Source: Sipunculus nudus
Taxonomy: Eukaryota > Annelida > Sipuncula > Golfingiida > Sipunculidae
DNA length: 64,000 bases
Assembly: GCA_026874595.1 (NCBI GenBank)
Contig: CM049317.1
Span: 43,362,401-43,426,400 of the forward strand
Direction of reading: 5' to 3'
Part shown: positions 1 through 62,588 of the stretch, piece after piece
Layout: every line of letters begins with the position of its first letter
Position numbering within the stretch: position 1 is the stretch's first letter
The notes under the pieces: generated by a model
Told to the model about the DNA's origin: nothing
Databases searched by the model: none
Seen by the model: the letters and a program-made list of their open reading frames with translations, nothing else
Translations under genes and position numbers: made by a program

Positions 1-288
1 AAATCTTTGCAGGTAACCCCTCCAGTTTTGTGTATGATAAAGAGCTATGTGAGATCTAAACACATGCACAATTTTGGCCTAATCGGTCAAATGGTTCCTG
101 AGATATGAGCTTGGATGTGTCCAGCGTTAACTAGAATGTAGGTGGCGCCACCTGTCATAAAATCAAGAAAGCTGTCCACGATGTATAAACCTGCAAAATT
201 TTAGGCAGTTATGTCGAACCACTACAGAGGAGGAGGAACTCGGTCAAAAACATAGTATCCGCAAAACTTCGTTTTGGCGGATACAAAA
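1..288 (+). mobile_element. C-family element, 3' part (C0), cut by window start
   Basis: This is the tail of a tandem-core element. It shows an exact GGTGGCGCCACC at 141-152 and ends in a hairpin at 255-284 (arms GTATCCGCAAAAC and GTTTTGGCGGATAC, loop TTC, one unpaired base) followed by AAAAA. Related copies lie at 17982-19442, 56993-57900 and 61327-62056. It runs straight into A-family sequence at 289 with the same junction as at 57900, so it is a C element nested in an A element. It is non-coding. Confidence 0.75.
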
Positions 289-2331
289 ATACAGGTGGCT
301 CCACCAGTCTGCAGAAACTAATAAAAACACTTAATGGTCAATATCCATGCAAAAAAATCATGGTGATCTCTGCATTAGTTGTTCAGATACTTCAGTTTTT
401 GTATCAAATTGTCCATTATTCTGAGGGATACTTCGGAGTCCTATAGCTTGAAGGATATGGGTAACAGAGACCTAATTTCAAGTTTCCACAGGCACCTTTC
501 ATGGGCCTCCTTGCATGACAAGAATGAAGATTCTAGGTCCAGTTGTTGCGATTTGTACATTGTTGACAGATAACCACATCTTTAAAGGTCTCAAAAAAAA
601 GAAAAAAATTCGTAAAAATTTGAAAAAAAAATAGAGGTGGCACACCCAGTCTGCAGAAACTGATGGAACAGCTCATGATCAATATGTATGCCGAAAATCA
701 TGACCATCAGTGTTGTAGTTATTGAAATACTGCAGATTTTGTATCAAATTTTCCATTATTCTGGGGGGGGGGGGGGGTATTTTGGACCCATACAGCTTAA
801 AGAATATGGGTAACAGAGACCTAATTTCAAGTTTCCATGGAGACTTTTCATGGGTCTCCCTGTGTGTCAAGAATGAAGATTCTTGGTCCAGTTTTTATGA
901 TTTGTGCCCTGTTAACAGATGGTCATATCTTTAAAGGTCTCAAAAATACAGAAAAATTTCGTAAAAAAAACCGAACAAATACAGGTGGTGCCACCAGTCT
1001 GCAGAAACTTATGAAACACTCCATGATCAATATCCATGCAAACAATTATGGTTATCTCTACATTAGTTGTTCAGATACTTTAGCTTTTGTATCAAATTTT
1101 CCATTATTCTGAGCTGTACTTTGGAGTGCCATAGCTCAAAGGATATGGGTAACAGAGACCAAAATTCAGGTTTCCATGGAGACTTATCATGGGTCTCCCT
1201 GTGTGTCAAGAACGAAGATTCTAGGTCCAGTCGTTACGATTTGTACCCTGTTGACAGATAACTACATCCTTAAAGGTCTCAAAAATGGAGAAAACAATTC
1301 GTGAACATTGAAAAATACAGGTGGCGCCACCAGTCTGCAGAAACTGATGGAACAGCTCATGATCAATATGTATGCCGAAAATCATGACCATCAGTGATGT
1401 AGTTAATGAGATATTGAAGTTTTTGTATGAAATTTTTTACTATTCTGGGGGGTAATTTTGGGCCCCATAGCTCGAAGGATATGGGTAACAGAGACCTAAT
1501 TTCTGGTTTCCATGGAGACTTTTTATAGGTCTCTCAGTGTGTCGAAAATGAAGATTCTAGGTCCAGTCGTTACGATTTGTGCCACGCTAACAGATGACAG
1601 CATCCTCAAAGGTCTCAAAAATAGAGGAAAAAATCGTAAAAAATCAAACAGTACAGGTGGCGCCACCAGTCTGCAGGAACTGATCAAACATCTCATGATC
1701 AATATGTATGCCAAAAATGAAGACCATCAGTGATGTAGTTATTGAGATATTGAAGTTTTTGTATGAAATTTTTTACTATTCTGGGGGGTACTTTGGGGCC
1801 CCATAGCTCAAAGGATATGGGTAACAGAGACCTAATTTCTGGTTTCCGAGGAGATTTTTCACGGACCTCTCAGTGTGTCAAGAATTAAGATTCTAAGTCC
1901 AGTCTTTATGATTTGTGCCTTGTTAACAGATGTTCACATTTTTAAAGGTCTCAAAAATAGAGAAAAAAATTCGTAAAAAATCGAAAAAATACAGGTGGCG
2001 CCACCAGTCTGCAGGAAGTGATGTAACATCTCATGATCAATATGTATGCCAAAAATCATGACCATCAGTCAAGTAGTTTATGAGATATTGAAGTTTTTGT
2101 ATGAAATTTTTTACTTTTCTGGGGGGTACTTTGGGGCCACATAGCTCGAAGGATATGGGTAACAGAGACCTAATTTCTGGTTTCCAAGGAGATTTTTTAT
2201 GGACCTCTCAGAATCCCAAGTTACAAGGTTCTAGGTCCAGCGGTTACGATTTGTGCCTGGTTAACGGACGGACAGACGGACAAAGAGTGATCGCTATAGC
2301 TCAGATGACTTTCAGTCAGCTGAGCTAAAAA
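289..2331 (+). mobile_element. A-family tandem-core element (A0), 3' part
   Basis: Six tandem units of about 335-340 bp. Each starts near a CAGGTGGCGCCACCAGTCTG box, carries a G-run before a GTACTT, and has the phrase GGGTAACAGAGACCTAATTT. The last unit passes into a GGACGGACAGACGG microsatellite and the A-type terminal hairpin (TAGCTCAG/CTGAGCTA) followed by AAAAA near 2331. Short open frames occur in every unit, but only because the unit repeats; they have no coding signature. The 5' head lies outside the window. Confidence 0.8.
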
Positions 2332-2609
2332 GGATGCATAAATAAAATGTTCCAGCTATAAAAGTAAGGTAAATTGAGTAAAACTAGCTGAAGGCTTATA
2401 GTCATGGCAATATGACTAAATCACAAGAACATATAAGTGATATAAGGCTTATAGTCATGGCAATACGACTAAATCACAAGAACATATAAGTGATATAAGG
2501 CTTACTGGAAACAGACAATATTTCAAAGAATTTCTCCCAAGTTTAATCTAAGGGTCCAAAAAGCTGATCATTAAATAATTTAACAAATACATACATTCAG
2601 TTATCCCAC
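2332..2609. repeat. Intronic/downstream spacer with a 53-bp two-copy tandem repeat
   Basis: Two copies of a 53-bp unit beginning AAGGCTTATAGTCATGGC occupy 2391-2443 and 2444-2496, and a third starts at 2497 and breaks off. The rest is AT-rich with no gene signal. It lies just downstream of the minus-strand exon at 2610-2762. Confidence 0.7.
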
Positions 2610-3795: not shown

Positions 3796-6599
3796 AACAA
3801 GTGACCCAGGGGTCATGACGCTCAGCTGACCAGGAAGACATTGACAAAAATAATTTTATTATCTGAATGTCAAATTTGAATGAAATACTTTTTCCAAACT
3901 TGACCTTTTGTATAAAATCATCCAATATTCATTGGGGTACTATGGAGCTCTGTAGCATGAAGGATATGGGTAACAGACACCTATTTATCAAGGTTTACAA
4001 GATGACTTTTCAGGGGTCTCCCAGCATGTCAAAAAATAAAATTCTAGGTCCAGTTATTATGATTTGTGCCCTGTTAACAAATCCAAATGTTTATTCTGGG
4101 GGGTATTTCAAAGCCGCATAGGATGAAGGATATGGGTAACAGAGATGTAATTTCAGGTGCACAAGGAGACTTTTCAGGGGCGTCCTAGCATATCAAGAAA
4201 GGAGATTCTAGGTCAAGTCATTATAATTTGTGCTCTGTTAACAGATGACCAAATCTTTATTCTGGGGAGTACTTCGGAGCCCCAGAGCATGAAGGATATG
4301 GGTAACAGGGACCTTATTTCGGTTTTCCATGTAGACCTTTTATGGGCTTCCCTGGAGGTGAGGACAGAAGATTCTAGGTCCAGTCATTATGATTTGTGCC
4401 CTGTTAATATATGACCAAATCTTTATTCTGGGGGAACTTCAGAGCCCCATAGCTCACAGAATATGGGTAACAGGGACCTTATTTCGGGTTTCCATGTAGA
4501 CCTTTTATGGGCTTCCCTGGAGGTGAGGACAGAAGATTCTAGGTCCAGTCATTATGATTTGTGCCCTGTTTACAGATGACCAAATGTTTAAAGATCACAA
4601 AAGTAGAGAAAAAAAATCGTAAAAAATAAAAAAAATATAGGTGGCGCCACCAATCTCCAGAAATTGATGAAACACTCCATGATCAATATCCATGCAAAAA
4701 AACATGGTGATTAATGCATTAGTTGTTCAGATACTTGAGCTTTTGTATTAAATTTTGCATTATTCTGGGGGGTACTTCAGAACCCCATAGCTCGAAGAAT
4801 ATAGGTCACAGTGACCTAATTTCAGGTTTACAAGGAGAATTTCCATAGACCTCCCAGGATTTCAAGTAAGAAGATTCCCGGTCTTGCGGTTACGATTTGT
4901 GCCCTGTTAACAGACAGACGCCTGGATGGCCGGACGGACGACGGACAAAAGGTGATCCCTACAGCTCAGATGACTTTCAGTCAGCTGAGCTAAAAATTGA
5001 AAAAATACAGGTGGCGCCACCAGAATGCAGAAACTGATGAAACATTTCATGATCAATATCCATGCAAAGAATCATGGTGATCAATATAATAATTGTTCAG
5101 ATACTTGAGCTTTTGTATCAAATTTTCCATTATTCTGGGGGGTACTTCGGAGCCCCATAGCTCAGAGGTTATGGGTAACAGAGACCTAATTTCAAGTTTT
5201 TAAGGAAACTTTTCATGGGCCTCTCAGCATGTCAAGAGAGAAGATTCTAGGTCCAGTTGTTACGTTTTGTGCCATGTTAACAGATGACCGCATCTTATGA
5301 GGTCTCAAAAATAGAGAAAAAAATTCGTAAAAATAAAAAAAATACAGGTGGCGCCACCATACTGCAGAAACTGATGACACATTCCATGATCAATATCCAT
5401 GCAAAGAATCATGGTGATCACTGCAATAGTTGTTTAGACACTTGAGCTTTTGTATCAAATTGTCCATTATTCTGAGGGATACTTCAGATGACTTACAGTC
5501 AGCTGAGCTAAAAACACTTAATGGTCAATATCCATGCAAAGAATCATGATGATCTCCATATTAGTTGTTCAGATACTTCTGCTTTTGTATCAAATTGTCC
5601 ATTATTCTGAGGGATACTTCAGAGTCCTATAGCTTGAAGGATATGGGTAACAGAGACCTAATTTCAAGTTTCCACAGGCACTCTTCATGGGCCTCCTTGC
5701 ATGACAAGAATGAAGTTTCTAGGTCCAGTTGTTGCAATTTGTACCCTCTTGATAGATAACCACATCTTCAAAAGTCTCGAAAAAAGAGAAAAAAAATTCG
5801 TAAAAATTTGAAAAAAATAGAGGTGGCGCACCCTCTCTGCAGAAACTGATGAAACAGCTCATGATCAATATGTATGCCAAAATCATGACCATCAGTCTTA
5901 TAGTTATTGAGATACTGCACTTTTTGTATCAAATTTTCCATTATTCTGGGGTGTATTTTGGAGCCATACAGCCTAAAGAATATGGGTAACAGAGACCTAA
6001 TTTCAGGTTTCCATGGAGAATTTTCATGGGTCTCCCTGTGGGTCAAGAATGAAGATTCTAGGTCCAGTTTTTATGATTTGTGCCCTGTTAACAGATGTTC
6101 ATATCTTTACAGGTCTCAAAAATAGATAAAACATTCGAACAAAAACCCGAACAAATACAGGTTGTGCCACCAGTCTGCAGGAACTGATGGAACACCTCTT
6201 GATCAAAAGTTATGCCACAAATCATGACCATCAGTGATGTAGTTATTGAGATATTGAAGTTTTTGTATGAAATTTTTGACTACTCTGAGGGGTACTTTGG
6301 GGCCCCATAGCTCGAAGGATATGGGTAACAGAGACCTAATTTCTGGTTTCCATGGAGACTTTTCATAGGTCTCTCAGTGTATTGAGAATGAAGATTCTAG
6401 GTCCAGTCGTTACGATTTGTGCCATGTTAACAGATGACAGCATCCTTAAAAGTCTCAAAAATAGAGGAAGAAATCGTAAAAAAATCAAACAGTATAGGTG
6501 GCGCCACCAGTCTGTTGGAACTGATGGAACATCTCATAATCAATATGTATGCCAAAAATCATGAACATCAGTGATGTAGTTATTGAGATATTGAAGTTT

Positions 6600-9500
6600 T
6601 TGTATGAAATTTTTGACTACTCTGGGGGAGTACTTTGGGGCCCCATAGCTCAAAGGATATGGGTAACAGAGACCTAATTTCTGGTTTCCATGGAGACTTT
6701 TCATAGGTCTTCTAGTGTGTTGAGAATGAAGATTCTAGGTCCAGTCGTTACGATTTGTGCCATGTTAACAGATGACAGCATCCTTAAAGGTCTCAAAAAT
6801 AGAGGAAAAAATTGTAAAAAATCGAACGATACAGGTGGTGCCACCAGTCTGCAGGAACAGATGATACATCTCATGATCAATAGTTATGCCACAAATCATG
6901 ACCATCATTCAAGTAGTTAATGAGATATTGAAGTTTTTGTATGAATTTTTTTACTTTTCTTGGGGGTACTTTAGGGCTCCATAGCTTGAAGAAAATGGGT
7001 AACAGAGACCTAATTTTGGTTTCCATGGAGACTTTTCATAGGTCTCTCAGTGTGTCGAGAATGAAGATTCTAGGTCCAGTCGTTATGATTTGTGCCAAGT
7101 TAACAGATGACAGCATCCTTAAAGGTCTCAAAAATAGAGGAAAAAATCGTAAAAATCAAACAAAACAGGTGGCGCCACAAGTCTGCAGGAACTGATGGAA
7201 CATTTCATAATCAATATGTATGCCAAAAATCATGACCACCAGTGATGTAGTTATTGAGATATTGAAGTTTTTGTATGAAATTTTTGACTACTCTGGGGGG
7301 GGGGGTACTTTGGTGCCCCATAGCTCGAAGGATATGGTTAACAGAGACCTAATTTCTGGTTTCCAAGGATATTTTTCATGGACCTTTCAGTGTGTCAAGA
7401 ATGAAGATTCTAGGTCCAGTCGTTATGATTTGTGCCATGCTAACAGATGACAGCATCCTTAAAGGTCTCAAAAATAGAGGAAAAAATCGTAAAAAATCGA
7501 ACAATAAAGGTGGCACCACCAGTCTGCAGGAAGTGATGACACATCTCATGATCAATAGTTATGCCACAAATCATGACCATCAGTCAAGTAGTTAATGAGA
7601 TATTGAAGTTTTTGTATGAAATTTTTTACTTTTCTTGGGGGTACTTTGGGGCTCCATAGCTTGAAGAATATAGGTAACAGAGACCTAATTTCTGGTTTCC
7701 ATGGAGACTTTTCATAGGTCTCTCAGTGTGTCAAGAATGAAGATTCTAGGTCCAGTCTTTGGGATTTGTGCCTTGTTAACAGATGTTTACATTTTGAAAG
7801 GTCTCAAAAATAGAGAAAAAATTCGTAAAAAATTGAACGATACAGGTGGCGCCACCAGTCTGCAGGAAGTGATGGAACATCTCATGATCAATATGTATGA
7901 CAAAAATCATGACCATCAGTCAAGTATTTAATGAGATATTGAAGTTATTGTTTGAAATTTTTTACTTTTCTGGGGGGGTAGTTTGGGGCCCCATAGCTGG
8001 AAGGATATGGGTAACAGAGACCTAGTTTCTGGTTTCCATGGAGACTTTTCATAGGTCTCTCAGTGTGTCGAGAATGAAGATTCTAAGTCCAGTCATTACG
8101 ATTTGTGCCTTGTTAACAGATGTTCACATTTTTAAAGGTCTCAAAAATAGAGAAAAAAATTCGTAAAAAATCGAAAAATACAGGTGGCGCCACCAGTCTT
8201 CAGGAACTGATGGAACCTCTCATGATCAATAAGTATGCCAAAAATCATGACCATCAGTCAAGTAGTTAATGAGATATTAAGTTTTTGTATGAAATGTTTG
8301 ACTACTCTGGGGGAGTACTTTGGGGCCCCATAGCTCAAAGGATATGGGTAACAGAGACCTAATTTCTGGTTTCCATGGAGACTTTTCATAGGTCTTCTAG
8401 TGTGTTGAGAATGAAGATTCTAGGTCCAGTCGTTACGATTTGTGCCATGTTAACAGATGACAGCATCCTTAAAGGTCTCAAAAATAGAGGAAAAAATCGT
8501 AAAAAATCGAACGATACAGGTGGTGCCACCAGTCTGCAGGAACAGATGATACATCTCATGATCAATAGTTATGCCACAAATCATGACCATCATTCAAGTA
8601 GTTAATGAGATATTGAAGTTTTTGTATGAATTTTTTTACTTTTCTTGGGGGTACTTTAGGGCTCCATAGCTTGAAGAAAATGGGTAACAGAGACCTAATT
8701 TTGGTTTCCATGGAGACTTTTCATAGGTCTCTCAGTGTGTCGAGAATGAAGATTCTAGGTCCAGTCGTTATGATTTGTGCCAAGTTAACAGATGACAGCA
8801 TCCTTAAAGGTCTCAAAAATAGAGGAAAAAATCGTAAAAATCAAACAAAACAGGTGGCGCCACAAGTCTGCAGGAACTGATGGAACATTTCATAATCAAT
8901 ATGTATGCCATAAATCATGACCAACAGTGATGTAGTTATTGAGATATTGAAGTTTTTGTATGAAATTTTTGACTACTCTGGGGGGGGGGGGGGGTACTTT
9001 GGTGCCCGATAGCTCGAAGGATATGGTTAACAGAGACCTAATTTCTGGTTTCCAAGGATATTTTTCATGGACCTTTCAGTGTGTCAAGAATGAAGATTCT
9101 AGGTCCAGTCGTTATGATTTGTGCCATGCTAACAGATGACAGCATCCTTAAAGGTCTCAAAAATAGAGGAAAAAATCGTAAAAAATCGAACAATAAAGGT
9201 GGCACCACCAGTCTGCAGGAAGTGATGACACATCTCATGATCAATAGTTATGCCACAAATCATGACCATCAGTCAAGTAGTTAATGAGATATTGAAGTTT
9301 TTGTATGAAATTTTTTACTTTTCTTGGGGGTACTTTGGGGCTCCATAGCTCGAAGAATATAGGTAACAGAGACCTAATTTCTGGTTTCCATGGAGACTTT
9401 TCATAGGTCTCTCAGTGTGTCAAGAATGAAGATTCTAAGTCCAGTCTTTAGGATTTGTGCCTTGTTAACAGATGTTTACATTTTGAAAGGTCTCAAAAAT

Positions 9501-9975
9501 AGAGAAAAAATTCGTAAAAAATTGAACGATATAGGTGGCGCCACCAGTCTGCAGGAAGTGATGGAACATCTCATGATCAATATGTATGACAAAAATCATG
9601 ACCATCAGTCAAGTATTTAATGAGATATTGAAGTTATTGTTTGAAATTTTTTACTTTTCTGGGGGGGTAGTTTGGGGCCCCATAGCTGGAAGGATATGGG
9701 TAACAGAGACCTAGTTTCTGGTTTCCATGGAGACTTTTCATAGGTCTCTCAGTGTGTCGAGAATGAAGATTCTAAGTCCAGTCATTACGATTTGTGCCTT
9801 GTTAACAGATGTTCACATTTTTAAAGGTCTCAAAAATAGAGAAAAAAATTCGTAAAAAATCGAAAAATACAGGTGGCGCCACCAGTCTTCAGGAACTGAT
9901 GGAACCTCTCATGATCAATATGTATGCCAAAAATCATGACCATCAGTCAAGTAGTTAATGAGATATTGAAGTTTT
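6600..9975 (+). repeat. Higher-order repeat: 5-unit block of about 1.69 kb, two copies
   Basis: Within A1, units of about 337 bp form a block of five that occurs twice, at about 6600-8284 and 8285-9975. Matching landmarks are offset by 1685 bp on the left and 1689 bp on the right; the 4-bp shift comes from a longer G-run at about 8980. Copies of the same unit in the two blocks are almost identical, while neighbouring units inside a block differ clearly. This is the signature of a recent block duplication rather than unit-by-unit homogenisation. Confidence 0.85.
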
Positions 9976-10197
9976 TGTATGAAATTTTGGACTTTTCTGG
10001 GGGGTACTTTGGGGCCCCATAGCTCGAAGGATATGGGTAACAGAGACCTAATTTCTGGTTTCCAAGGAGATTTTTCATGGACCTCTCAGAATGCTAAGTT
10101 ACAAGGTTCTAGGTCCAGCGGTTACGATTTGTGCCTGGTTAACGGACGGACAGACGGACAGACGGACAGACGGACGACGGACAAAGAGTGATCGCTA

Positions 10198-10228
10198 TAG
10201 CTCAGATGACTTTCAGTCAGCTGAGCTA
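10198..10228 (+). repeat. A-family terminal hairpin (example)
   Basis: The outer stem TAGCTCAG (10198-10205) pairs with CTGAGCTA (10221-10228). The inner stem TGACT (10207-10211) pairs with AGTCA (10215-10219). The loop is TTC, with one A/G mismatch between the stems, and AAAA follows. The same hairpin closes A0, A2, A3, E1, E2 and E3. Only the loop changes: TTC or TAC in A, TAT in E. Confidence 0.9.
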
Positions 10229-10232
10229 AAAA

Positions 10233-10652: not shown

Positions 10653-11295
10653 AAACAAGGCCTACAGGCCTAATGTGAACCTGTGCATATGGATATACAC
10701 CAGGTATAACGCTTCAATGCTGAACCACTACTTTTCATATATATGAACAATGCAAGTACTAAACATTTTGAACAAGAAACAATACACAACATCACTGCTG
10801 AAATTCTGGCATGGGTGCACACAACACAAAAATTATTGTAGGTGGCACCACCAGTCTTGTGTATGACAAAGCTATTTGACATGTATAATAATTTCAGGCT
10901 GATATATCAAATTCCTCCGTAGAATTAAGCAGGCACATACACTTTGCAAAAGTCATTTTAGATGGTGACACCTGTCTTGTGAACGAGAAAAGCCATTAAA
11001 GACACATAGACAGGTCAGAATATCAGGCCAATACATCAAACTTACCTTGAGTCTGATGCACGGGGCTGACCAGGCTTAGGTGAGAAAGGCTGTTGCCCCG
11101 AGTGTACTGTGACAAATTACTGGCTCAGGCTACTGCACTGAATGAACTCTTGACCTGTTGCATAATCTGACACAGTTGGCAGTCTGCCAAAGCTATAAAT
11201 AAATCCAGGCTGACCTTTTGCCTATTGCCAAATCTAAAATAGTAGCCACACAATTGCATAAGCTCACAGATTGGCTTCATATGCAGCCCTGAGGG

Positions 11296-12771: not shown

Positions 12772-13430
12772 ACTTGAATTATCAACATCTAAGGATAATT
12801 AATGAGTGAAACTGAACTAAGATCATTTGAATAAACTTCAGAAAGCACTACCGTAATTCTGTGCGATATTAAACAATTTGGCCATATGGTTTTAGAGAAG
12901 AAGTTTTTTGTAGCCTTCATTATGATACAGGCACTCATGACCCCCGTACAAAAAAGGCTAATGCAGGTGGCGCCACCAATACCTCAATTTCAGATATAAG
13001 TCATGTGACCAATATCTGTATAAAATTTGGTGATGACAGCTCTAGCCGTTTCTGAGATTGTAATTTTAGTATGCTTTTTTAACAGATGACTAAGTTCAAC
13101 TTTGTGTAACTCAGCCAAAAATTGCCGGATTTAAACCATTTGAACAAACTTGAGAGAGATTGTTCAAGGGATCATTTCTATGAAATATTGGACAATTTGG
13201 CTGAACAGTTTCGGAGAAGATTTTAAAAGCTTTTTTAGCTTTTTCCCTATAAAATCTAAGAAAATGCAGTTTGCCAAAAATAAGCAAAATCCGATAAAGT
13301 TTTTTAGATGACTAATTTTTTGCATAAAATTTTGTAATGCTAACTCTTGCCGTTTTCAAGATAGTATGGGTTAACGTACAGACGACGGACAACGCCACAT
13401 CATCACATAAGCTCACAGGTTCGCTAAAAA

Positions 13431-15767
13431 TGTGAAGAAAGAAGTGCTTCAGGTGAAACAGCATATGCTGCAGTGCTTGATAGTGCTTGTACATAAACAG
13501 TAGCATGCAGAGCATGGAAAGAAACTTACATAGAATCTCTGTCTGAATCAAAGTTCAAATATGGGGGAGAAACAAGAAAAGTGTCTTTTGAAAAAGTGCA
13601 TATTCCTGCATATGTTGCAGGGTACAAAGTAATGATCACAACAGATATAACTGACAATGATATTCCATTGCAGCTCAACAAGCCGGACATGAAGTTTGGA
13701 ATGAAACTTGACCTAGAGAATGACACAGGGCTCCACCATCTTTGGTTAGAAAATTGAACTTGACACTACCAGGTCAGGGCATTACTGTTTACCTCTAAGA
13801 GATTTTGAAGTGAACATGAATGAGATACATCATATAGCAATTTTAAATTCAACACAAGAAAAGGAGAAAATGGTGAAAAACTGCACAGGCAATTTGTGCA
13901 TCCTTCGGCTAAAAGTCTGAGAGCACTAATGAAAGATGCTGAAGTACTGGATAATGAAATTGAAGTATGATAAAGAACATATCTGAAAAATGTAATACAT
14001 GCAAGTGATACATAAAGACTCCTGCTAGACCTGCATGTTGTATGCCTGCCAAGGTTTAATGAAACTTTTGCAATGGATTTGAAGCATTTCAAGCCAAGGA
14101 TTTATTTTCTACATCTGATAGATCTACATTAAGATTTAGCTTGGCTAAGGTGATCTAAAGAAAGTTGCCAATTGTAATTTTTGATAAAGGTTTACTGATG
14201 AGGATTGCCTCTGGGCTTGGAGCTCCAGAGAAGCTTCTTGTGGACAATGGAGATGAAGCGTTGTGCACTTGATGTTGAGACGGCACTTGCATGGGCAGTT
14301 AATGCCAAGAATTCAATGCTCAACTGTAACAGATTTTCTCCTAACCAGCTAATGTTCTGGCAAAATTCAAAGCTGCCCTCTGTTATGACAAATAAATTGC
14401 CTGGGCTGGAGAGTTTAACAACAAGTGAAAAAGTCAGTAAACATCTGAATGCACTTCATGCTGTCAGAAAAACATATATTAAAGCTAAAGCTTCAAACAG
14501 AATAAAAAAGGCTCTGAAACATCCAGTTTATTACAAGAGAGATGAAAGCAACAGATGGCGGGAACCAAGGAAAGTGATGGGCCAAGATAATGAGATTGTG
14601 TTCACTTGTCATGGAAATCAGTTGGTAAGGGTTTCTTCATGTAGACTGGTACAAGTTGGCAAAGAATACACACACTCTGAGGAAACTTTCAAACAAATAC
14701 CTTAAAGCTCTGTATGGATAAAGGGGCTGCCACAGCCCAGATTCTTACTGGAGAACAACAGAATGAATCAACTAAAGACCTTGGAAATCAGTCTATGGAG
14801 GGATCTGAAACATTAGAAAGCCTAAATGTTAGTGGTTAGCATAAGGTGTAAAGGACAGAGGTCAAAAGACTTGGTCAACAAAATGGGGTATAACTGAAAA
14901 ACTGTTTCCAGGTAACAGAAAAGGTAGCAAAGCTAGACTTGTTGTTAGAGGTTCTGAGGAAGGTAGCAAAGCTAGACTTGTTGTTAGAGGTTCTGAGGAA
15001 GATGAAAACATTTGGTCTGACTCATCTACTGCTGGTAAATCAACCTTGAGTTTTCTTTTCTGTAGCAGCTAATGAGAAATGGAAATGTGAAACAAAAGAT
15101 ATCAAAGTAGCTTTTCTGCAAGGAAGCAAGATAGCTAGAGATGTTTTCTTAATGTCACCCTCAGGAGCCAGAGTAGATGGTTAAATATGGAAACTAAAGA
15201 AATTTGCATATGGGTTAGATGATGCTGTGTAAACAGGTTCAGTTAAATAAGTCTCTGTTCAGATGGTATGCAGATGATAAGCTACAGGGTATGTTCTTCA
15301 TGCATGCTGATGACTTTTTAAATTGCAGGAACAGATAAGTTCCTACAACAGGTGATCATTGCGAGAAATGTTCCAGGTGGGAAAGATAGAACAGGGATGC
15401 AAAAAGTATGTTGCTCTCTTCATTGATCACAATGATGATGGTCTGTCTATTCAGCAGCAGAGATACATTGATGAGATGGAGACTCTCAATATGGCATCTT
15501 TGGGATATCAGTGACTTGACTCTGCAAGTATTTGTAGATGCTGCATGGGCAAACGTGCCAGATGGCACTTCTTGTACTGGAGGGTATGTCATATATCTGA
15601 CAGGAGACAACAACATAAGTGCTCCAACAGACTGGTTTGTTAGCAAGATCAAGAGAACAGTACATAGCACACTTTCTGCTGAGGCCCTTGCAATGTTGAA
15701 TTGAGTGGAGAATGCTATTTACCTTGAGAATATGATCACAGAACTTTACAGGGATCATTTAAGGAAA
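13431..15767 (+). pseudogene. Copia-type pol pseudogene (protease, integrase, RT, RNase H)
   Basis: Recognisable Ty1/copia Pol pieces follow in the right order with many stops and frame changes. The protease is AVLDSACT, near 13470. A GHYCLPLRD segment lies near 13776 and the integrase zinc-region remnant KLHRQFVHPS (different frame) near 13880. The integrase core has AMDLKHF near 14070 and EKLLVDNGDE near 14220. The integrase C-terminal part is a long open stretch, 14205-14705, with ALAWAVNAKNSM and SPNQLMF. The RT has DIKVAFLQGSK near 15100, WKLKKFAYGLDDA and MHADDF near 15305, the last in place of the usual copia VDD box. RNase H has DAAWANVPDGTS and STLSAEALAM. The order protease-integrase-RT-RNase H is diagnostic of copia. 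The frame ends at 15767, where A2 is inserted. No LTR was identified. It is not functional. Confidence 0.85.
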
Positions 15768-17493: not shown

Positions 17494-17981
17494 TAGTAAA
17501 AATCAAAAATACAGGTAGCGCCATCAGTCTGCAGAAACTTATGAAACACTATGATTAATATCCATGCAAAGAATCATGGTGATCAATGCATTATTTGTTC
17601 AGATACTGGGGCTTTTGTATCAAATTTTTCATTATTTTTGGGGGTACTTTAGAGCCCCATAGCTGGAAGAATATGGGTAACAGTGACCTAATTCCTGGTT
17701 TCATAGAAGACTTTTCATGGACCTCTCTGGATGTACAGTGAGATGATTCCGGGTCCAGTGGTTAAGATTTGTGCCCTGTTAACAGATGACGGCACCTTTT
17801 GAGGTCTAAACAAGGCCTAAAAGCCTAATGCGAACCTGTGCAGAGTTTGGGAGTATGAATGGAGGTTTATTTTTAAAATTTTATATTGATCCTCTTAAGT
17901 ACTGCATATCTACCTTAGTCATTATGATTTCAGCAAAATGGACGTTTCGGACCTGCAAGTTTCAGACTAGGACATTTTAAA

Positions 17982-19442
17982 ACTAGAATATGGGTAGTCG
18001 ACAAGCGACTATGTGTATCCGCAGAAATCAGAGTGGGACTGGTGAAGTGAGGCATGGATTAAGTGGCAAGGGGAATAGAGTGAGGTGTGTTGCATATTAG
18101 CATGGATGTCTGCAGCATAAACCTGAATGTAGGTGGTGCCACCTGTCATAAAATCAAGAGAGCTGTCCAGGATGTATAAACCTGCAAAATTTCAGGTGGA
18201 AAAGTCAAACCACTCATGAGATACGAGTGATTTTATCCCAAGGCAGATGAACAGATCTACCCTGTACAGTGGTTGCAGGTGGCGCCACCAGTTTTGCCTA
18301 TGATGAAGAGCTATGTGAGATCTATACACAAGCAAAATTTTGGCCCAATCGGTCAATTGGTTCCCGAGACATGAGCTTGGATGTCTGCAGAGTAAACCTG
18401 AATGTAGGTGGCGCCACCTGTCATAAAATGAAGAAAGCTGTCTAGGATGTATAAACCTGCAAAATTTCAGGTGAATAAGTCAAAACACTGCTGAGATATG
18501 AGTGATTATATCCCAAGGCAGATGAACAGATGGACACTCTGCATCAATGGTTGCAGGTGGCGCCACCAGTTTTAACTATGATGAAGAGCTATGTGAGATC
18601 TATACACATGCAAAATTTTGGCTCAATCGGTCAAACGGTTGCCGAGATATGAGCTTGGATGTCTGCATAGTAAACCTGAATGTAGGTGGCACCTCCTGTC
18701 ATAAAATCAAGAGAGCTGTCCAGGATGTATAAACTTGCAAAATTCAGGTGGAAAAGTCAAACCACTGCTGAGATATGAGTGATTTTATCCCAAGGCAGAT
18801 GATCAGATGGACGCTGTGCATAAATGGTTGCAGTGGCGCCACTAGTTTTGCCTATGATGATGAGCTATGTGAGATCTATACACATGCAAAAGTTTGGCCC
18901 AATCGGTCAAACGGTTGCCAAGATATGAGCTTGGATGTCTGCAGAGTAAACCTATATGTAAGTGGCGCCACCTGTCATAAAATCAAGAAAGCTGTCCAGG
19001 ATGTATAAACCTGCAAAATTTCAGGTGGAAAAGTCAAGCCACTGCTGAGATATGAGTGATTTTATCCCAAGGCAGATGAACAGATGGATGCTGTGCATAA
19101 ATGGTTGCAGGTTGTGCCACCACTTTTAGTGTATGTTATAAAGCTTTCCAAGAGCTACATTTGTGCGAAATTTTTAGCCTGATCAGTCAAACGGTTCCCA
19201 AGATATGTGGGTTTATGTGTGGAAACAGACGCACAAATGGACGCTGGGCAGAGAGGAAAGGTTGGAGGTCAACCAAATATGAGGGCGCAGCAGTTCACAT
19301 GTGACTGATCATAATTCCGAATTTAAAAAAATTCTGCCCAGTGGTTAAGGAGGAGTTCTCCGGAAACCTATGTGGCGAAAGCGGCAGCATCGGCGTAGAA
19401 TGAAAACATAGTATATGCAAAACTCTGTTTTGGCGGATACAA
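17982..19442 (+). mobile_element. C-family element C2, nested in B2
   Basis: The head is AACTAGAATATGGGTAGTCG with inverted GTAGTC/GACTA(C) and then GTGTATCCGC. Inside are roughly four double units of about 280-300 bp. Each double unit has two palindromes: one followed by TGTCATAAAATCAAG and the next by AGTTTTGCCTATGATG. The 3' hairpin near 19410-19440 (AGTATATGCAAAAC against GTTTTGGCGGATAC) is more decayed than in C0. B sequence resumes at 19443. Confidence 0.8.
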
Positions 19443-20210
19443 TGATTTGTAGCTTGCACCACCACTCTTATATACAACTAGAGATATATACATATGCCCA
19501 ATGTCAGACTGATATGCAAACCCCTCCTGTGAAATAAGCAGAGACATACACTGTGCAAAAATCATTGTAGGTGCCACCACCAGTATTGTACACTATAAAG
19601 CTACCTGTTATGTATAAACATGCCGAATTTTACGCTGATGTATCAAATTCCTCTGTAGAAATAAGCAGGCGCATACACTGCAAAAGTCTATGTAGGTGGC
19701 ACCACCTGTCTTGTAAATGAGAATACCATCAAAGACGCATAGACAGGTCAGAATATCAGTCCAATACATCAAACTTCCCCAGAGTTTGATGCACTGGGCT
19801 GACAAGGCTTAGGTGGAGAGGCAGTTGCCCACAAGTGACCTGTGACAAATTGCTGCCTCAAGCTACTGCACTGAGTGAACTCTTGACCTGCACCTGGCTA
19901 GACTGAGTGAACTTTTGACCTGTACCTGGCTGCACTGAGTGAACTCGACCTGTTGCATAATCACAGTTGGCAGGCTGCCAAAGCTATAAATAGATTCAGG
20001 CTGAACTCTGGTACCAAATATGATGCAGTGAGCAGTCTGCCAAAGTTATAAATAGAATGCAGCTACTGCACTGAGTGAACTCTTGACCTATACCTGGCTG
20101 CACTTCTTCCAATCCAGGCACTGTGCCAAAACTATTTATAGAGCTGACATCATCTTGGCTAATGGTAACATCAAGGCACTGGCAATCTGCCATCTGTACA
20201 CAAGAGTGGT

Positions 20211-29011: not shown

Positions 29012-29098
29012 AATTCCAAAATGTTCAGGCTACAAGAAAAAAATTTCCGGAGACCCTCACAGACACGTCCTTATGCCTCCATGTTAGTCACGTGACCC

Positions 29099-37519: not shown

Positions 37520-39722
37520 CCTTACTTAAAATAACTTACAAAATGCTTTTCTGCTGACTTATTATAAAAAAGAAATCAGGAATATATGTAAAATTATTAC
37601 AGATACATACTGAATGCAAAATTAAAATACAGATATATCTCATTGATGGCAAATTCTTGAATTAAGTTGAGTAGGGATACCAATAATTTATAATCAACAT
37701 ACAGTTGTCTTTATATAGCTACAGAGAGCTCAATATCCATGATTGTAACATTGCCTAGTATGATTAATAACTTAAACCATAAATCTAAATTTTTTAAAAG
37801 CTTTTAAAAAAACTTTCAAGTCAATATTAACCAAAGACAACCTGAAATCTAAATGTTTAGTGGCATGATGTAATAGATGCTGATAAACTAGCGCCAGGCT
37901 AGATGTAACAGCATCACACAGCTAACATATATGGTAAAATGACTCAATTCAATCTCCATAATTCAGCCAAAAATCATTCATGTGGAACCATTAATGACAA
38001 TTATTATAAGAATTATTGTAGGGATTATTCTTGTAAAAAATTTAACAAACTGGCGTCAGTGGCATCAGTCGAAAAACGTTTCGCAGGTTTATAACTCATA
38101 TAGGAAGATACAGCAAAATGGCCAAATTCAGTTTCCCATAACTCAGCCAAAAAGCACTGAACCAAAACCATTTGAATAAACATGAATTATCAACATCTGT
38201 GGATAATTAATGTGTGAGATTTAAGGATTTGGCCAAGTGGTTTTTGAGAAGAAGATCTTTGTAGCCACTGAGCTAAAATGGGCTGTTATGGCATATGACT
38301 AAGTTTAGCTTCCAATAACTTAGCCAAAAGTCACTGAAAAGAGACCATTTGAACAAACTTCAGAAAGCACTACCCTAGGATCATTTCTGTGCAATATTAA
38401 ACATTTTGGCCATATGGTTTCAGAGAAGAAGTTTTTTGTAGCCCACAGTGTCATACAGGCACTGATGACCTCGTACAAAAAAGGCGGATGCAGGTGGCGC
38501 CACCAATACCTCAATTTCGAATATGACCTATGTGACCAACATTGGCATATAATTTGGTGATGATAGCTCGAGCCGTTTCTAAGATTTAAATTTTAATATG
38601 CTTTTTTGCAACGTTAATAAAGTTCAACCTCCTGTAACTCAGCCCGAAATCTCCGAACTGGAACCATTCGAACAAACTTGAGAAAGATTGTTCCAGGGAT
38701 CATTTCTGAAAAATATTGGACAATTTGGCTTGACAGTTTCAGAGAAGAAGATTTTTAAAGCTTTTTTAGCTTTTTCCCTATAAAATCTAAGAAAATGCAG
38801 TTAGAAAAAAAATAAACAAAATCCCATATAGTTTTTTCAATGACTGATTATTTGAAAAAAAATTGGTGATGCTAGCTCCTGCCGTTTTTGAGATAGCTAT
38901 GGTTAACGTACAGACGACGTACAACCTACGACGCACGACGGACGCCGCCGCACCATCGCATAAGCTCTCAGGTTCGCTAAAAAAAAGAAAAAAAAACTTG
39001 TAAAAATTTTTTTAAAAATTCAGGTGGTGCCACCAGTCTGCAGAAACTGATGAAAAACTCCATGATCAATATCAATGCAAAAAATCATGGTGATCAATAC
39101 ATTCGTTGTTCAGATACTGGGGCTTTTGTATCCAATTTTTCATTATTCTGGGGGGGTACTTTAGAGCCCTATAGCTGGAAGAATATGGGTAACAGAGACC
39201 TAATTCCAGGTTTCCAAGAAGACTTTTCATGGGCCTCCCAGCATGTCAAGAAAAACAATTCTAGGTCTAGTCGTTACGATTTGTGCACTGTTAATAGATG
39301 ACCGCATCTTTTTAGGTCTTGAAAATAGATAAAAAAATAGTAAAAAAATAAAAAAATACAGATGGGGCTACCAGTCTGCAGAAACTGATGAAACACTCCA
39401 TGATTAATATCCATGCAAAGAATCATGGAGATAAATGCATTAGTTGTTTAGATACTTGAGCTTTTGTATTAAATTTTTCGTTATTCTGGGGGGTACTTTG
39501 GAGCCCCATTGCGGGAAGAATATGGGTAACAGTGACCTAATTCCAGGTTTCCAAGAAGACTTTTCATGTACCTCTCTGGATGTAAAGCTGGAAGATTCAA
39601 GGTACAGTGGTTACTATTTGTGCCTTGTTAACGGACAGACGGCCAGATTGCCGGATGGCAGGACGCCCGGCAGCCAAAGAGTGATTGCTATAGCTCAGAT
39701 GACTTACAGTCAGCTGAGCTAA
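37520..39722 (+). mobile_element. B2 tail and A2 tail in duplicate 2
   Basis: B-family sequence runs 37520-38983, ending CAGGTTCGCTAAAAA, with GGTGGCGCCACC near 38491. A-family core units follow at 38984-39722, ending in the A hairpin (loop TAC) and AACAA. They are copies of 29099-30562 and 30563-31301. Confidence 0.9.
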
Positions 39723-45064: not shown

Positions 45065-45313
45065 CTGTGAAAAAAAAAAAAAAAGCCAGCTAAATGTTTA
45101 TTAACATTGCTTGTCTGATAAAAATCTAGTAAAACCTTGCCTAAGGACCACCTGGAAATTAAGACATTTTCATTGTCCTGATCCTTAACCTCTTAATATT
45201 ATTTACTTTAACACTGAAATTGTGGGCACTGGAGAGGGAGGGGTGCAAAATGATGGGAGTTACAACATCACTGCATATACACACAGGATCTTAAGCTTAA
45301 TTTTAACAATGCT

Positions 45314-56808: not shown

Positions 56809-59602
56809 AAACAAGTGACCCATGGGTCATGATGCTCAGCTGACTGGGAAGAGATTCGCAAAAGGAAATTTTACCATCAGAATGGTAGTATATACCCATT
56901 CAACTGAAGCATCAAACAGATTAACCAACAGGCCAAGATTTAGTCTGTATTTATATATCTCAAAAATAGATAAAAAATGTGTAAACTTTAAAAACTAGAA
57001 TACGGGTAGCCGACAAGTGACTACGTGTATCCGCCAAAATCAGAGTGGAACGGTTGAATTGAGGCATGGATTGAGTGGCAAGGGGAAATAGAGTGAGGTA
57101 TGTTGCATATTAGCATGGATGTCTGCAGCCTAAATGTGTATGTAGGTTGTGCCACCTACCACAAATCCAGAAAGCTGTCCAAGTTGTATACAAATGCAAA
57201 ATTTTAGGCAGAAAAGTCAAACCACTACATGTATATGAGTGATTTTAGCCGACAGCAGACAAACAGACAGGCGCTGTGCAAAAATGGTTGCAGGAGGCAC
57301 GACCAGTTTTGCGTATGATAAAAGAGCTATGTGAGATCTATACACATGCAAAATTTTGGCCCAATTGGTCAAACAGTTCCCGAGATATGAGCTTGGATGT
57401 GATCAGCGTGAACGTGAATGTTGGTGGCGCCATCTGTCATAAAATCAAGAAAGCTATCCTGGATGTATATGCATGCCGAATTTCAGGTGAATTAGTCAAT
57501 TCACTGCAGAGATATGAGTGATTTTAACCCAAGGCAGATGAACAAATGGACACTGTGCAAACATGGTTACAGGTGGCGCCACCATTTTTGTGATGTTATA
57601 AAGCAATCCAAGGGCTACATTTGTATAAATTTTATTTCCTGATTGGTCAATTGGTTCCCAAGATATGAGGGTTTATGTGTGGAAACAAACGCACAAATGG
57701 ACGCTGGATAGAGGGCAAAGGTCAGAGGTCAACACAAATTTGTTAGGCACTAGTTCACATGTGACTCGATAATTGGTGTAAGTTTCAGAAAAATTGGTCC
57801 ATTTTTCTCAGAGGAGCTCTCTGGAAACAAATGTGGTTGCGGCGGAGGAACCTGGTCAAAAACAAAGTATCTGCAAAACTTCGTTTTGGAGGATACAAAA
57901 ATACAGGTCGCTCCACCAGTCTGCAGAAACTAATAAAAAAACTTAATGGTCAATATCCATGCAAAGAATCATAATGATCTCCGCATTAGTTGTTCAGATA
58001 CTTCAGCTTTTGTATCAAATTGTCCATTATTCTGAGGGATACTTCAGAGTCCTATAGCTTGAAGGATATGGGTAGCAGAAACCTAATTTCAAGTTTCCAC
58101 AGGCACTCTTCATGAGCCTCCTTGCATGACAAGAATGAAGTTTCTAGGTCCAGTTGTTGCAATTTGTACCCTGTTGACAGATAACCTCATCTTTAAAGGT
58201 CTCAAAAAAGAGAAAACAAATTCATAAAAAATTGAAAAAAATAGAGGTGGCACACCCAGTCTGCAGAAACTGATGGAACAGCTCATGATCAATATGTATG
58301 CCGAAAATCATGACCATCAGTGTTGTATTTATTGAGATACTGCACTTTTTGCATCAATTTTCCATTATTCTGGGGGGTATTTTGGAGCCATACAGCCTAA
58401 AGAATATTGGTAACAGAGACCTAATTTCAGGTTTCCATGGAGAATTTTCATGGGTCTCCCTGTGTGTCAAGAATGAAGATTCTAGGTCCAGTTTTTATGA
58501 TTTGTGCCCTGTTAACAGATGTTCATATCTTTAATAGTCTCAAAAATAGAGAAAAAATTCGTAAAAAAAACCCCAAACAAATACAGGTTGTGCCACCAGT
58601 CTGCAGGAACTGATGGAACACCTCTTGATCAATATGTATGCCAAAAATCATGACCATCAGTGATGTAGTTATTGAGATATTGAAGTTTTTGTATGAAATT
58701 TTTGACTTTTCTGGGGGGTACTTTGGGGCCCCGAAGCTCGAAGGATATGAGTAACAGAGACCTAATTTCTGGTTTCCATAGAGACTTTTCATAGGTCTCT
58801 CAGTGTGTAGAGAATGAAGATTCTAGGTCTAGTTGTTACGATTTGTGCCACGTTAACATATGACAGCATCCTTAAAGGTCTCAAAAATAGAGGAAAAAAT
58901 CGTAAAAAATCGAACAATACAGGTGGTGCCACCAGTCTGCAGGAACTGATGGAACATCTCATAATCAATATGTATGCCAAAAATCATGACCATCAGTGAT
59001 GTAATTATTGAGATATTGAAGTTTTTGTATGAAATTTTTGTTTTTTCTGGGGGGTACTTTGGGGCCCCATAGCTCGAAGGATAAGGGTAACAGAGACCTA
59101 ATTTCTGGTTTCCATAGAGACTTGTCATAGGTCTCTCAGTGTGTAGAGAATGAAGATTCTAGGTCTAGTCGTTACGATTTGTGCCACGTTAACAGATGAC
59201 AGCATCCTTAAAGGTCTCAAAAATAGAGGAAAAAAATCGTAAAAAATTGAACAATACAGATGGCCCCACCAGTCTTCAGGAACTGATGGAACATCTCATG
59301 ATCAATATGTATGCCAAAAATCATTACCATCAGTCAAGCAGTTAATGAGATATTGAAATTTTTGTATGAAATTTTTGACTTTCTAGGGGGTACTTTGGGG
59401 CCTCATAGCTCGAAGGATATGGGTATCAGAGACCTAATTTCTGGTTTCCAAGGAAGTTTTAAATGGACCTCTAAGAATCCCAAGTTACAAGGTTCTAGGT
59501 CCAGCGGTTACGATTTGTGCCTGGTTAACGGACAGACAGACGGACGACTGACAAAGAGTGATCGCTATAGCTCAGATGACTTTCAGTCAGCTGAGCTAAA
59601 AA
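56809..59602 (+). mobile_element. A-family element A3 with nested C3
   Basis: The head is AACAAGTGACCCATGGGTC, then ATGATGCTCAGCTG. About 180 bp of leader ends in an A-run where C3 is inserted. Core units continue from 57901 (boxes near 57905, 58247, 58586, 58922, 59258, all one or more bases off the palindrome). It ends with a GGACAGACAGACGG run and the hairpin with loop TTC. It corresponds unit by unit to 289-2331. Confidence 0.82.
56993..57900 (+). mobile_element. C-family element C3, nested in A3
   Basis: The head is AACTAGAATACGGGTAGCCG and GTGTATCCGCCAAAATC. The tail hairpin GTATCTGCAAAAC/GTTTTGGAGGATAC is slightly decayed. It has two to three double units, with an exact GGTGGCGCCACC at about 57574. 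Confidence 0.85.
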
Positions 59603-61326: not shown

Positions 61327-62056
61327 AACTAGAATACTGGTAGTCAACAAGCGACTACGTGTATCCGCCTAAATCAGAGTGGAACGGGTGAAGTGAGGCA
61401 TGGATTAAGTGGCAAGGGGAAACAGAGTGAAGTGTTGCATATTAGCATGGATGTCTGCAGCCAAATTGTGTATGAAGGTTGCGCCACCTACCAAAAATCC
61501 AGAAAGCTGTCCAAGTTGTATACATATGCAAAATTTAAGGCAGATAAGTCAAACCACTACATGTATATGAGTGATTTTAGCCCGTAGCAGACAAACAGAT
61601 GGACGCTGAGCAAAAATGGTTGCAGGTGGCGCCACCAGTTTTGCGTAAGATAAAGAGCTATGTGAGAACTATACACATGCAAAACTTTGGCCCAATCGGT
61701 CAAACGGTTCCCAAGATATGAACTTGGATGTCTGCTGCATAAACAAGAATGCAGGTGGCGCCACCTGTCATAAAATCAAGAGAGCTGTCGGGGATGTATA
61801 AACCTCCAAAATTTTAGGCAGATATGTCAAACCACTGCCGAGATATGAGTGATTTTATCCTGTGGCAGACAAACAGACGGGAGCTGTGCAAAAATGGCTG
61901 CAGGTGGCGCCACAAGTTTTGTGTATGATAAAGAGCTATGTGAGATCTATACACATGCAAAATTTTGGCCCAATCGGTCAAACGGTTCCCGAGATATGAG
62001 CTTGGATGTCTGTAGCGTAAACGTGAATGTAGGTGGCGCCACCTGTCATAAAATCA
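61327..62056 (+). mobile_element. C-family element C4, 3' truncated
   Basis: The head is AACTAGAATACTGGTAGTC, with GACTAC and GTGTATCCGCC. It has about two double units with exact palindromes near 61626, 61754 and 62030, and one altered box (GGTGGCGCCACA) near 61903. It stops abruptly in CATAAAATCAG and has no terminal hairpin. Confidence 0.85.
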
Positions 62057-62588
62057 GACTAGAATATCAGCAGAAGCTGACAAAAGCCCTCAGCCAAAAG
62101 AACAGTGTTTAGAGGTGGTAACAGTAACAAGTACTAAATATCTGTTCTCACATGGATGTATATCTGTACATGTCTCAGTTATAAATTTAAAATGGAGAGG
62201 TATGTATCATGATTCATAACAATCCACCAAATGCTTCCTGAAAAATAAGCTTCTAAGTTTTATTCTAATATCTGCTCTGTGACCTTGAAAAGTAGGTCAA
62301 GGTCACCCATCTTCGAACTTGACCAAGATTTTGTCGATATACATTTTCACCAAAGAAATAAAGTTCCTATTGTGAATCCTTTTAGAGATATCCCGCTCAC
62401 AAGCCCAAAGTTGAAAAATCGGATAAAAATTCATTAAAAATCAGATATTGTAGGTGGCGCCACCAAACTTGTGTAGCAGGTACAGATTATCAGTCCAAAT
62501 AATCATAGTAAGTTTTGTGAAAATCAATCAAATGGTTCCTGAGTAATAAGCATCTAAGTGTTTTTCTATAATCAGCTCTAAAATGTAG
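62057..62588. repeat. Family I fragment with GGTGGCGCCACC
   Basis: Starts ACTAGAATATCAGCAG. It contains GTAGGTCAAGGTCACCC near 62292, and at about 62454 an exact GGTGGCGCCACC followed by AAACTTGTGTAGCAGG and, 70 bp on, AATGGTTCCTGAGTAATAAG. This last phrase matches the C-family GGTTCCCGAGATATGAG. It is cut by the E4 head. Confidence 0.6.

What the first reader, a model, noticed from the sequence alone, without database searches (positions are those of the whole stretch)
141..62465. A 12-bp palindrome, GGTGGCGCCACC, shared by otherwise different tandem-repeat families
By eye there are about 30 exact copies (for example 141-152, 1656-1667, 5010-5021, 12966-12977, about 18279, 20562, 22447, 30071, 57574, 61754, 62454) and many one-base variants. 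In random 64-kb sequence fewer than one would be expected. It heads the core units of families A, B, C, F and I, which differ in length and most of their sequence. It keeps a CG in its centre in AT-rich DNA. A loose common order follows it: about 25-35 nt on, an ATGATCAATATNCATGCAAA-like phrase, then a GTTCCTGAGATATGAG-like phrase. This suggests either a common ancestor with one site held by selection, or a protein-binding or processing site that different elements share.
Basis: seen in the sequence. Interest (0 to 1): 0.85.

Follow-up and report, generated by a model that had tools for sequence, protein, structure and literature searches.

The report
Shared palindrome inside rolling-circle transposon repeats
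A 12-letter symmetrical DNA word, found about 110,000 times in this animal's genome, is the one fixed part of the repeats carried inside several families of small rolling-circle transposons, and further transposons are often found landed just beside it.

Summary
The window has 30 exact copies of GGTGGCGCCACC; the genome has 111,729, against 14 for the letters read backwards. Copies examined sit in modules with a loose common order, mostly repeated in tandem inside non-autonomous Helentrons (HINEs): recurring 3' ends, 13-bp subterminal inverted repeats in two A-type elements, (ACGG)n tracts. The genome encodes Rep-helicase-endonuclease proteins, but no autonomous partner with these ends was found.

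Between close copies the CpG changes 3.6-5.6 times faster than flanks and the other ten bases at about 0.6 of the flank rate. Between six family consensuses (palindrome masked) flanks differ by 53% and the word by 0. Its non-CpG divergence stays at 8-13% while flanks go from 13% to 43%. This fits constraint on multiplying lineages more than on resident copies.

An A-run ends 8-14 bp upstream in 11 of 13 representatives. A-type HINE 3' ends lie 0-30 nt upstream of the word 1,306 times (about half one amplified junction), 31-61 nt upstream 93 times, and before a control A-run 31 times.

Best reading: a protein-binding box used in propagation. The protein is unknown.

The parts
141..152 (+). exact palindrome, B-type module
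285..2265 (+). A-type array, 336-bp unit; first unit carries GGTGGCTCCACC at 294; exact palindromes at 1320, 1656, 1994
2218..2331 (+). A-HINE 3' end (about): (ACGG)n, then ...CAGCTGAGCTAAAAA
4640..4651 (+). exact palindrome, A-type
4888..4996 (+). A-HINE 3' end that stops 13 bp before the palindrome at 5010
5010..5021 (+). exact palindrome, A-type, just after a HINE 3' end
5347..5358 (+). exact palindrome, A-type
5583..10143 (+). A-type array, 337-bp unit, 13.5 copies; exact palindromes at 6497, 7845, 8183, 9534, 9872
10142..10232 (+). (ACGG)n and A-HINE 3' end (about)
10841..10852 (+). F-type module (GGTGGCACCACC); uninterrupted version of a site that holds a B-HINE in L011
12966..12977 (+). 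exact palindrome, D-type module
13391..13431 (+). D-type 3' end (about) ...CACAGGTTCGCTAAAAA
17514..17525 (+). A-type module (GGTAGCGCCATC) 25 nt after another HINE-like end, GGCGGGGGCAT
17975..19451 (+). B-HINE (approximate ends) with 278-bp array; 5' TGTATCCGC at 18014 matches the 3' end at 19433 in inverse; exact palindromes 18278, 18407, 18556
20564..20575 (+). exact palindrome, G-like module
20843..20854 (+). exact palindrome, G-like module
21365..23486 (+). C-type array, 339-bp unit; exact palindromes 21775, 22109, 22448, 22791, 23475
30072..30083 (+). exact palindrome, D-type
30550..30613 (+). D-type 3' end followed 40 nt on by an A-type module (GGTGGTGCCACC at 30602)
38493..38504 (+). 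exact palindrome, D-type, in the second copy of the 8.4-kb duplication
56810..59602 (+). composite HINE (approximate ends): 5' subTIR GCTCAGCTGACTG at 56834, nested B-HINE (exact palindrome 57572), A-type array 57900-59450, 3' subTIR CAGTCAGCTGAGC at 59584
61327..62056 (+). B-HINE fragment with 278-bp array; exact palindromes 61625, 61754, 62032
62453..62464 (+). exact palindrome, E-type module

Best explanation
GGTGGCGCCACC is the invariant box of the central tandem repeats carried by several families of non-autonomous Helentrons (HINEs), in what is probably a mollusc. The families seem to descend from one module: A-run, 8-14 bp, YA, the palindrome, then a GATCAATA/CATGCAAA phrase and a GTTCCTGAGATATGAG phrase. 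The rest of the module has drifted almost beyond recognition. The box is kept because copies that have it multiply. Most likely it is a dyad-symmetric binding site, with an A-tract about one helical turn upstream, for a protein (element- or host-encoded) that helps HINEs to be mobilised, amplified or placed. After insertion the copies decay. Further HINEs are often found inserted at the 3' edge of the A-runs just upstream, mostly in the same orientation, which builds nested composites. Shown: copy number, anatomy, decay pattern, excess of A-type 3' ends upstream. Inferred: that a protein binds, that propagation is what is selected, and that the same protein explains the insertion excess.
For: 111,729 exact copies against 14 for the reversed word. 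HINE anatomy: ten printed A-type copies (two pairs look like duplicates) end at ...CAGCTGAGCTAA; 13-bp inverted subTIRs and 8-bp 3' stems in two of two A-type elements tested. Open frames with Rep-type, PIF1 helicase and endonuclease domains in the genome. Non-CpG divergence of the word stays at 0.08-0.13 while flanks go from 0.13 to 0.43; 0 against 0.53 between six masked family consensuses. With B1 flanks fixed, 13,623 of 22,419 sites hold the exact word. An A-run of three or more ends 8-14 bp upstream in 11 of 13 representatives. A-type 3' ends 0-30 nt upstream of the exact word: 1,306; 31-61 nt: 93; before a control A-run in the same module: 31. Of the first 100 of the 1,306, 52 were classed as one amplified junction; the other 48 comprise 42 distinct gap sequences.
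Against: No protein, binding or expression data. Symmetric double changes are not enriched over asymmetric ones (130 and 431 against 927 in two classes together), so symmetry itself is not shown to matter in resident copies. First units of A arrays carry a fixed non-palindromic variant and still spread with the element (GGTGGCTCCACC), and one F-like kind of module has lost the palindrome (GCTTGCACCACC and similar). In B1 the word is among the best kept 12-column windows (6 of 141) and the non-CpG ratio of 0.6 in close copies may mean some protection in residence. Pairs are not independent, and misalignment can raise flank divergence in distant pairs. The insertion excess may be due to A-run length: the control run has 5 A, the nearby runs 5-7. 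The loci read for autonomous elements carry neither these ends nor the word.
Confidence: 0.5

Rival explanations
1. Shared descent only: one ancestral module, with a box that happens to have drifted slowly, no function.
For: The modules share a loose order of phrases. Within families the word is an unremarkable 12-column window in five of six families (rank 32, 86, 40, 32 and 62 of 140 or 141, low being best kept; mask one column off in three of the six).
Against: Between the six masked family consensuses flanks differ by 53% on average (minimum 21%) and the word by 0, although its CpG changes 3.6-5.6 times faster than flanks in close copies. Families without the word would have been missed by my seeds.
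Confidence: 0.15
2. Host-factor site: the extended box YAGGTGGCGCCA is a core site of a host zinc-finger protein such as CTCF, spread by HINEs as rodent SINEs spread CTCF sites (recalled).
For: A precedes the word in 128 of 131 typed sites and C/T before that in 119 of 131, giving YAGGTGGCGCCA, a fit to the recalled consensus YAGRKGGCRSYV (from no call). CTCF arose in the bilaterian ancestor and its sites were reported at domain borders in a squid (PMC10658181, passages).
Against: The CCA half of the recalled consensus is missing upstream. A one-sided site does not need the right half ACC, which is as invariant. The motif was looked at after the fact. No binding data. A search for AGGTGGCGC with CTCF listed four papers, none opened.
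Confidence: 0.13
3. Recombination or template-switch joint: in single-stranded transposition intermediates every copy can pair with every other, so the word drives unit gain, loss and module exchange, and arrays without it do not form.
For: The predicted fold of one single strand pairs two neighbouring palindromes (z -3.1). Modules with alike left and unlike right flanks (B2/B3) and one kind of right flank (D) with three left flanks meet at the word. In R. philippinarum 13 of 16 junctions of phBglII400 map to a 12-bp palindrome (PMC5139131).
Against: Pairing between identical palindromes is expected whatever their role. Homology starts cluster 0-20 bp upstream of the word but homology stops do not cluster after it, which fits insertions upstream better than exchange at the word; alignments that run on through the shared word bias this count. 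Read by eye, natural ends of A arrays lie about 47-66 bp upstream of it.
Confidence: 0.15
4. RNA-level element (ribozyme, small-RNA source or processing site).
Against: None of the 14 Rfam matches at E up to 5 in the window lies on a palindrome site, and none is a ribozyme.
Confidence: 0.03

Closest known systems
Cg_HINE elements of Crassostrea gigas (PMC7492417; abstract, first part of Results and passages seen)
   Same: Non-autonomous Helentrons with central satellite-like repeats (138-181 bp consensus units), subTIRs, microsatellite and 3' palindrome; elements with related flanks but unlike repeats; two relatively conserved segments shared by five of 13 repeat clusters.
   Different: No 12-bp palindrome common to all repeat families is described in what I saw. 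In A-type elements here the microsatellite lies between array and 3' end, and units are often 278 or 336-339 bp.
phBglII400 satellite of Ruditapes philippinarum (PMC5139131; abstract, first part of Results, Discussion and passages seen)
   Same: Unit with two alignable halves, one 12-bp and one 10-bp palindrome; 13 of 16 junctions at the 12-bp palindrome. The A unit here has GGTGGCGCCACC and the 10-bp TGGGGCCCCA 138 bp on.
   Different: Its letters were not available to me, so identity of the palindrome is not shown. The A unit is 336 bp. The B unit here also has another 10-bp palindrome, so the parallel may be chance.
DTC84 / pearl elements of bivalves (mentioned in PMC5139131 and PMC7492417; original papers not seen)
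   Same: Modular elements with short arrays; a conserved palindrome near the repeat junction in DTC84.
   Different: Sequence not seen.
DINE-1 / HINE class (PMC4067079; passages seen)
   Same: subTIRs, 5' inverted repeat, 3' stem-loop, T-rich insertion sites, central repeats in some, Rep-helicase-endonuclease partners.
   Different: An invariant box shared by the central repeats of different families is not described in the passages seen.

Membership tests
HINE (non-autonomous Helentron) | subTIRs of at least 11 identical bp at both ends | tested here: met
   A-type: 13 bp GCTCAGCTGACTG/CAGTCAGCTGAGC in 2 of 2 elements. B-type: longest exact inverse match 9, 6, 11, 7 and 6 bp in five copies, so met in 1 of 5.
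HINE (non-autonomous Helentron) | stem-loop near the 3' end | tested here: met
   A-type 8-bp stem in 2 of 2; B-type 8-bp stem in 2 of 5 copies, none of 7 bp or more in the other 3.
HINE (non-autonomous Helentron) | inverted repeat next to the 5' subTIR | tested here: inconclusive
   B-type 6-7 bp stem in 4 of 5 copies; A-type only 6-bp stems by the script, which passes over loopless palindromes.
HINE (non-autonomous Helentron) | insertion into T-rich (A-rich) sites, no target duplication | tested here: inconclusive
   3' ends abut A-runs. One empty site aligned (window 10841 against L011): A-run at the junction, with some target letters missing.
HINE (non-autonomous Helentron) | microsatellite and central tandem repeats | tested here: met
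   (A-type)
HINE (non-autonomous Helentron) | autonomous partner with the same ends and Rep/helicase/endonuclease | tested here: inconclusive
   Two frames with Helitron_like_N, PIF1 and endonuclease domains exist. The two 10-kb loci hold none of these ends, but may stop short of their own ends. 143 matches in all, a lower bound.
phBglII400 satellite | 400-bp unit with the published sequence | not testable with these tools
   Sequence not in the text I could read; unit here 336 bp.
CTCF site | full YDRCCASYAGRKGGCRSYV match (recalled) | tested here: not met
   The part YAGRKGGCRSYV fits; the upstream CCA does not, read by eye.
Self-cleaving ribozyme satellite (retrozyme) | match to a ribozyme family | tested here: not met
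   No Rfam ribozyme match at E up to 5 in the window.

The most novel reading that the evidence does not exclude
HINE arrays carry their own landing pads. A protein that binds the palindrome, helped by A-tracts upstream (helically phased in some families), tethers donor and target, so new copies insert within about 25 bp upstream of a palindrome, at the 3' edge of an A-run and in the same orientation. Every insertion brings more pads. The feedback explains the copy number, the nested composites and the stretches in which different families all point the same way.
Probability: 0.2. Interest if true: 0.82.

Novelty: new variant of a known kind. Interest (0 to 1): 0.58.

Why it matters
Satellite-like arrays in Helentrons are known, but why unlike repeat families keep one small word is not. 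A box that decays in resident copies and yet is the same in every family consensus tested points to a function in transposon propagation, and its sites can be counted, aged and tested. If the upstream insertion excess depends on the box, it gives a concrete route by which rolling-circle transposons nest and grow satellite clusters.

Tried and rejected
Ribozyme or known RNA: none of the 14 weak Rfam matches lies on a palindrome site. Earlier report of the word: the 12-mer occurs in 1 of 5.39 million held papers, an unrelated one by its title (listing only). Searches for mollusc satellites, palindromes and Helitrons led to no shared word in the parts I read; most listed papers were not opened.

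Symmetry kept by compensation: AGTGGCGCCACT 130 sites, GATGGCGCCATC 431, asymmetric AGTGGCGCCATC 464 forward + 463 reverse; no excess of symmetric doubles. The product test (56,030 against at most 214,832) cannot exclude independence if the two asymmetric classes are very unequal.

Family swaps exactly at the palindrome as the general rule: homology starts pile up 0-20 bp upstream (137 and 158 of 213 sites, other bins 15-107) but stops do not pile up after it. Masking the word there gave no usable answer, because alignments break at the mask. A first left/right comparison used a faulty identity measure and was discarded; one search replaced it.

Orientation domains: striking in the first 1.47 Mb of C1, weak beyond 1.1 Mb (28 of 40 pairs agree at 20-50 kb, three classes summed; runs tests beyond 1.1 Mb p 0.12 and 0.25; with the first part included p 0.011 for B and 0.13 for D). 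The B list there mixes (all B1) up to 3.08 Mb (exact B1 only) beyond, and some sites of one tandem cluster at 3.08 Mb were not typed.

In one search the masked columns were one off for A, B3 and D (consensus GTGGCGCCACCA); one search located the word by its letters instead. In one search the split into one amplified junction (52) and others (48) was made by a letter pattern; 18 of the 42 distinct others do not look A-type, but some are too short to assign (T, ACT).

'Probably a mollusc' is an inference from the style of the elements.
Full report
Check. The window holds 30 exact, 21 one-mismatch and 12 two-mismatch copies of GGTGGCGCCACC. The genome (1.43 Gb, 153 contigs; window at C12:43362401-43426400) holds 111,729 exact copies; the letters read backwards occur 14 times. 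Ten arbitrary 6-kb stretches (60 kb) held 1 exact and 2 one-mismatch copies.

What carries it. I fetched 16 stretches of chromosome C1 around listed sites (about 90 kb), the ten arbitrary stretches, and 18 small stretches around isolated sites. All-against-all comparison shows that the 278- and 336-bp arrays and the D-type modules belong to stretches that recur with common ends. The ten A-type ends printed read ...CAGATGACTTTCAGTCAGCTGAGCTAAAAA or close to it, after (ACGG)-like letters; two pairs look like duplicates. B-type elements start near ACTAGAATACGGGTAGTCGACAAGCGACTACGTGTATCCGCC and end near GTATCCGCAAAACTCTGTTTTGGCGGATACAA, with variants. Two of two A-type elements tested have 13-bp inverted subterminal repeats and an 8-bp 3' stem; five B-type copies have 6-11 bp and a 3' stem in two. 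This is close to HINE anatomy as given in PMC4067079 (passages) and in oyster Cg_HINEs (PMC7492417). The genome has at least 143 matches to Helitron_like_N. Two loci read with 10 kb each hold a 2,234-aa open frame and 2,303 aa of a frame that one search gives as 2,420 aa, both with Helitron_like_N, PIF1 and endonuclease domains. Neither carries the ends or the word found here, though the fetched stretches may stop short of their ends. The autonomous partner is not identified.

The module. Across 15 family representatives the palindrome is identical, flanking columns average 45% pairwise identity, and the best other block is the GTTCCTGAGATATGAG-like phrase at 69%. Nine of the 15 were chosen for holding the exact word, so the fair test uses six families (A, B1, B2, B3, C, D) aligned with the palindrome masked. 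Their seeds had at most two mismatches, so a family without the word would be missed; one F-like kind of module does seem to have lost it. A is at -1 in 128 of 131 typed sites.

Decay against constraint. In pairs of modules of one family with flank divergence under 3%, the ten non-CpG bases differ at 0.56 of the flank rate and the CpG at 4.7 times it. As flank divergence rises to 13, 17, 22, 27, 35 and 43%, the non-CpG bases stand at 9.4, 9.7, 9.3, 9.5, 12.9 and 8.2% (pairs are not independent). Between the six family consensuses flanks differ by 53% on average and the word by nothing. Genome-wide, with B1 flanks fixed, 13,623 of 22,419 sites hold the exact word. Decaying resident copies over constrained source lines would give this pattern. 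Within families the word is a middling window in five of six and a well kept one in B1 (6 of 141). First units of A arrays carry a fixed variant, GGTGGCTCCACC.

Symmetry. Double changes that keep the palindrome (130 and 431 sites) are not in excess of those that break it (927 in two classes). One predicted single-strand fold pairs palindrome with palindrome, which any identical palindromes would do.

The upstream side. An A-run of three or more ends 8-14 bp upstream of the palindrome in 11 of 13 representatives; the B2 and G ones lack it, though several other B2 copies read GCAAAAATGGTTGCA or close to it. In A the runs end at -4, -13, -24, -36 and -47, phased at about 11 bp (0 of 500 shuffles reach it); E and J also (p 0.014 and 0.006), C and K borderline (0.054, 0.056); the other eight show no phasing. 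The A-type 3' end CAGCTGAGCTAAAAA lies 0-30 nt upstream of an exact palindrome 1,306 times and 31-61 nt upstream 93 times. A control landmark in the same A module, right behind another run of five A, gives 31, of which 30 abut that run; in my sample the landmark occurs 38 times, against 21 typed exact A-type palindromes. Of the first 100 of the 1,306, 52 were classed as one amplified junction; the other 48 comprise 42 distinct gap sequences, 18 not A-type in look, with gap lengths between 1 and 13 or 22 and 25. Nine of the first 100 listed A-type ends (19-mer; 12,195 in all) are of this kind. In the window and first 26 stretches, 16 of 45 ends of four kinds have a palindrome-like word (up to 3 mismatches) within 60 nt, several of them copies of one junction, in stretches mostly picked for palindromes. 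An uninterrupted target aligns to the joined flanks of a B-HINE in L011 near the A-run before the word. Run length is not matched in the control, so how far the palindrome itself matters is open.

Mechanism. Shown: a box the same in every family consensus tested, decaying in place, mostly one turn downstream of an A-run, with an excess of A-type element ends just upstream. Inferred: a protein binds it during propagation, and the same binding may bring insertions there. Rivals are given with their odds. The closest precedent is phBglII400, where 13 of 16 junctions map to a 12-bp palindrome and a 10-bp palindrome is also present (PMC5139131). The A unit here has a 12-bp and a 10-bp palindrome, but I could not see those letters.

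Novelty. HINEs with satellite-like repeats are known. A single box common to many repeat families, its decay pattern and the insertion excess are not described in the parts of five papers that I read (PMC7492417, PMC5139131, PMC4067079, PMC8268682, PMC10658181; searches).

Noticed in passing
G000 C1:0.1-1.5 Mb: In the listings, B1 modules (45 entries, many in tandem), D modules (15) and A-type 3' ends (19) up to about 1.10 Mb all point one way; from 1.10 to 1.47 Mb the 13 B1 entries and 10 A-type ends all point the other way. Beyond, agreement is weak. The 131 typed sites in the window and first 26 stretches are all on one strand. Cause unknown: A-strand asymmetry, replication direction or duplication.
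   Followed up: partly
window 27800-33500 and 36200-41800: An 8.4-kb duplication; the 39-bp tandem repeat inside has 7 copies in one and 3 in the other.
   Followed up: no
window 23675-29029, - strand: A LINE-like element: endonuclease and reverse transcriptase with zf-RVT, and a 287-aa frame without a Pfam match that looks like a coiled-coil ORF1.
   Followed up: no
window 10510-10590: A perfect 40-bp inverted repeat with a 1-nt loop, weakly matched by microRNA models below their thresholds.
   Followed up: no
window 18278-19127 and L013, L015, L038: B2 and B3 modules have alike left flanks but differ for some 75 bp after the palindrome and then agree again (read by eye), as if a patch had been replaced.
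   Followed up: partly
L050 (C11:50378501-50388500), L049 (C13:9106500-9116499): Long uninterrupted Helentron-type frames with helicase and endonuclease domains, L050 also OTU; possibly still active.
   Followed up: partly
window 44432-45097, - strand: An open frame with a weak ZU5 domain match, one of few hints of host coding sequence.
   Followed up: no
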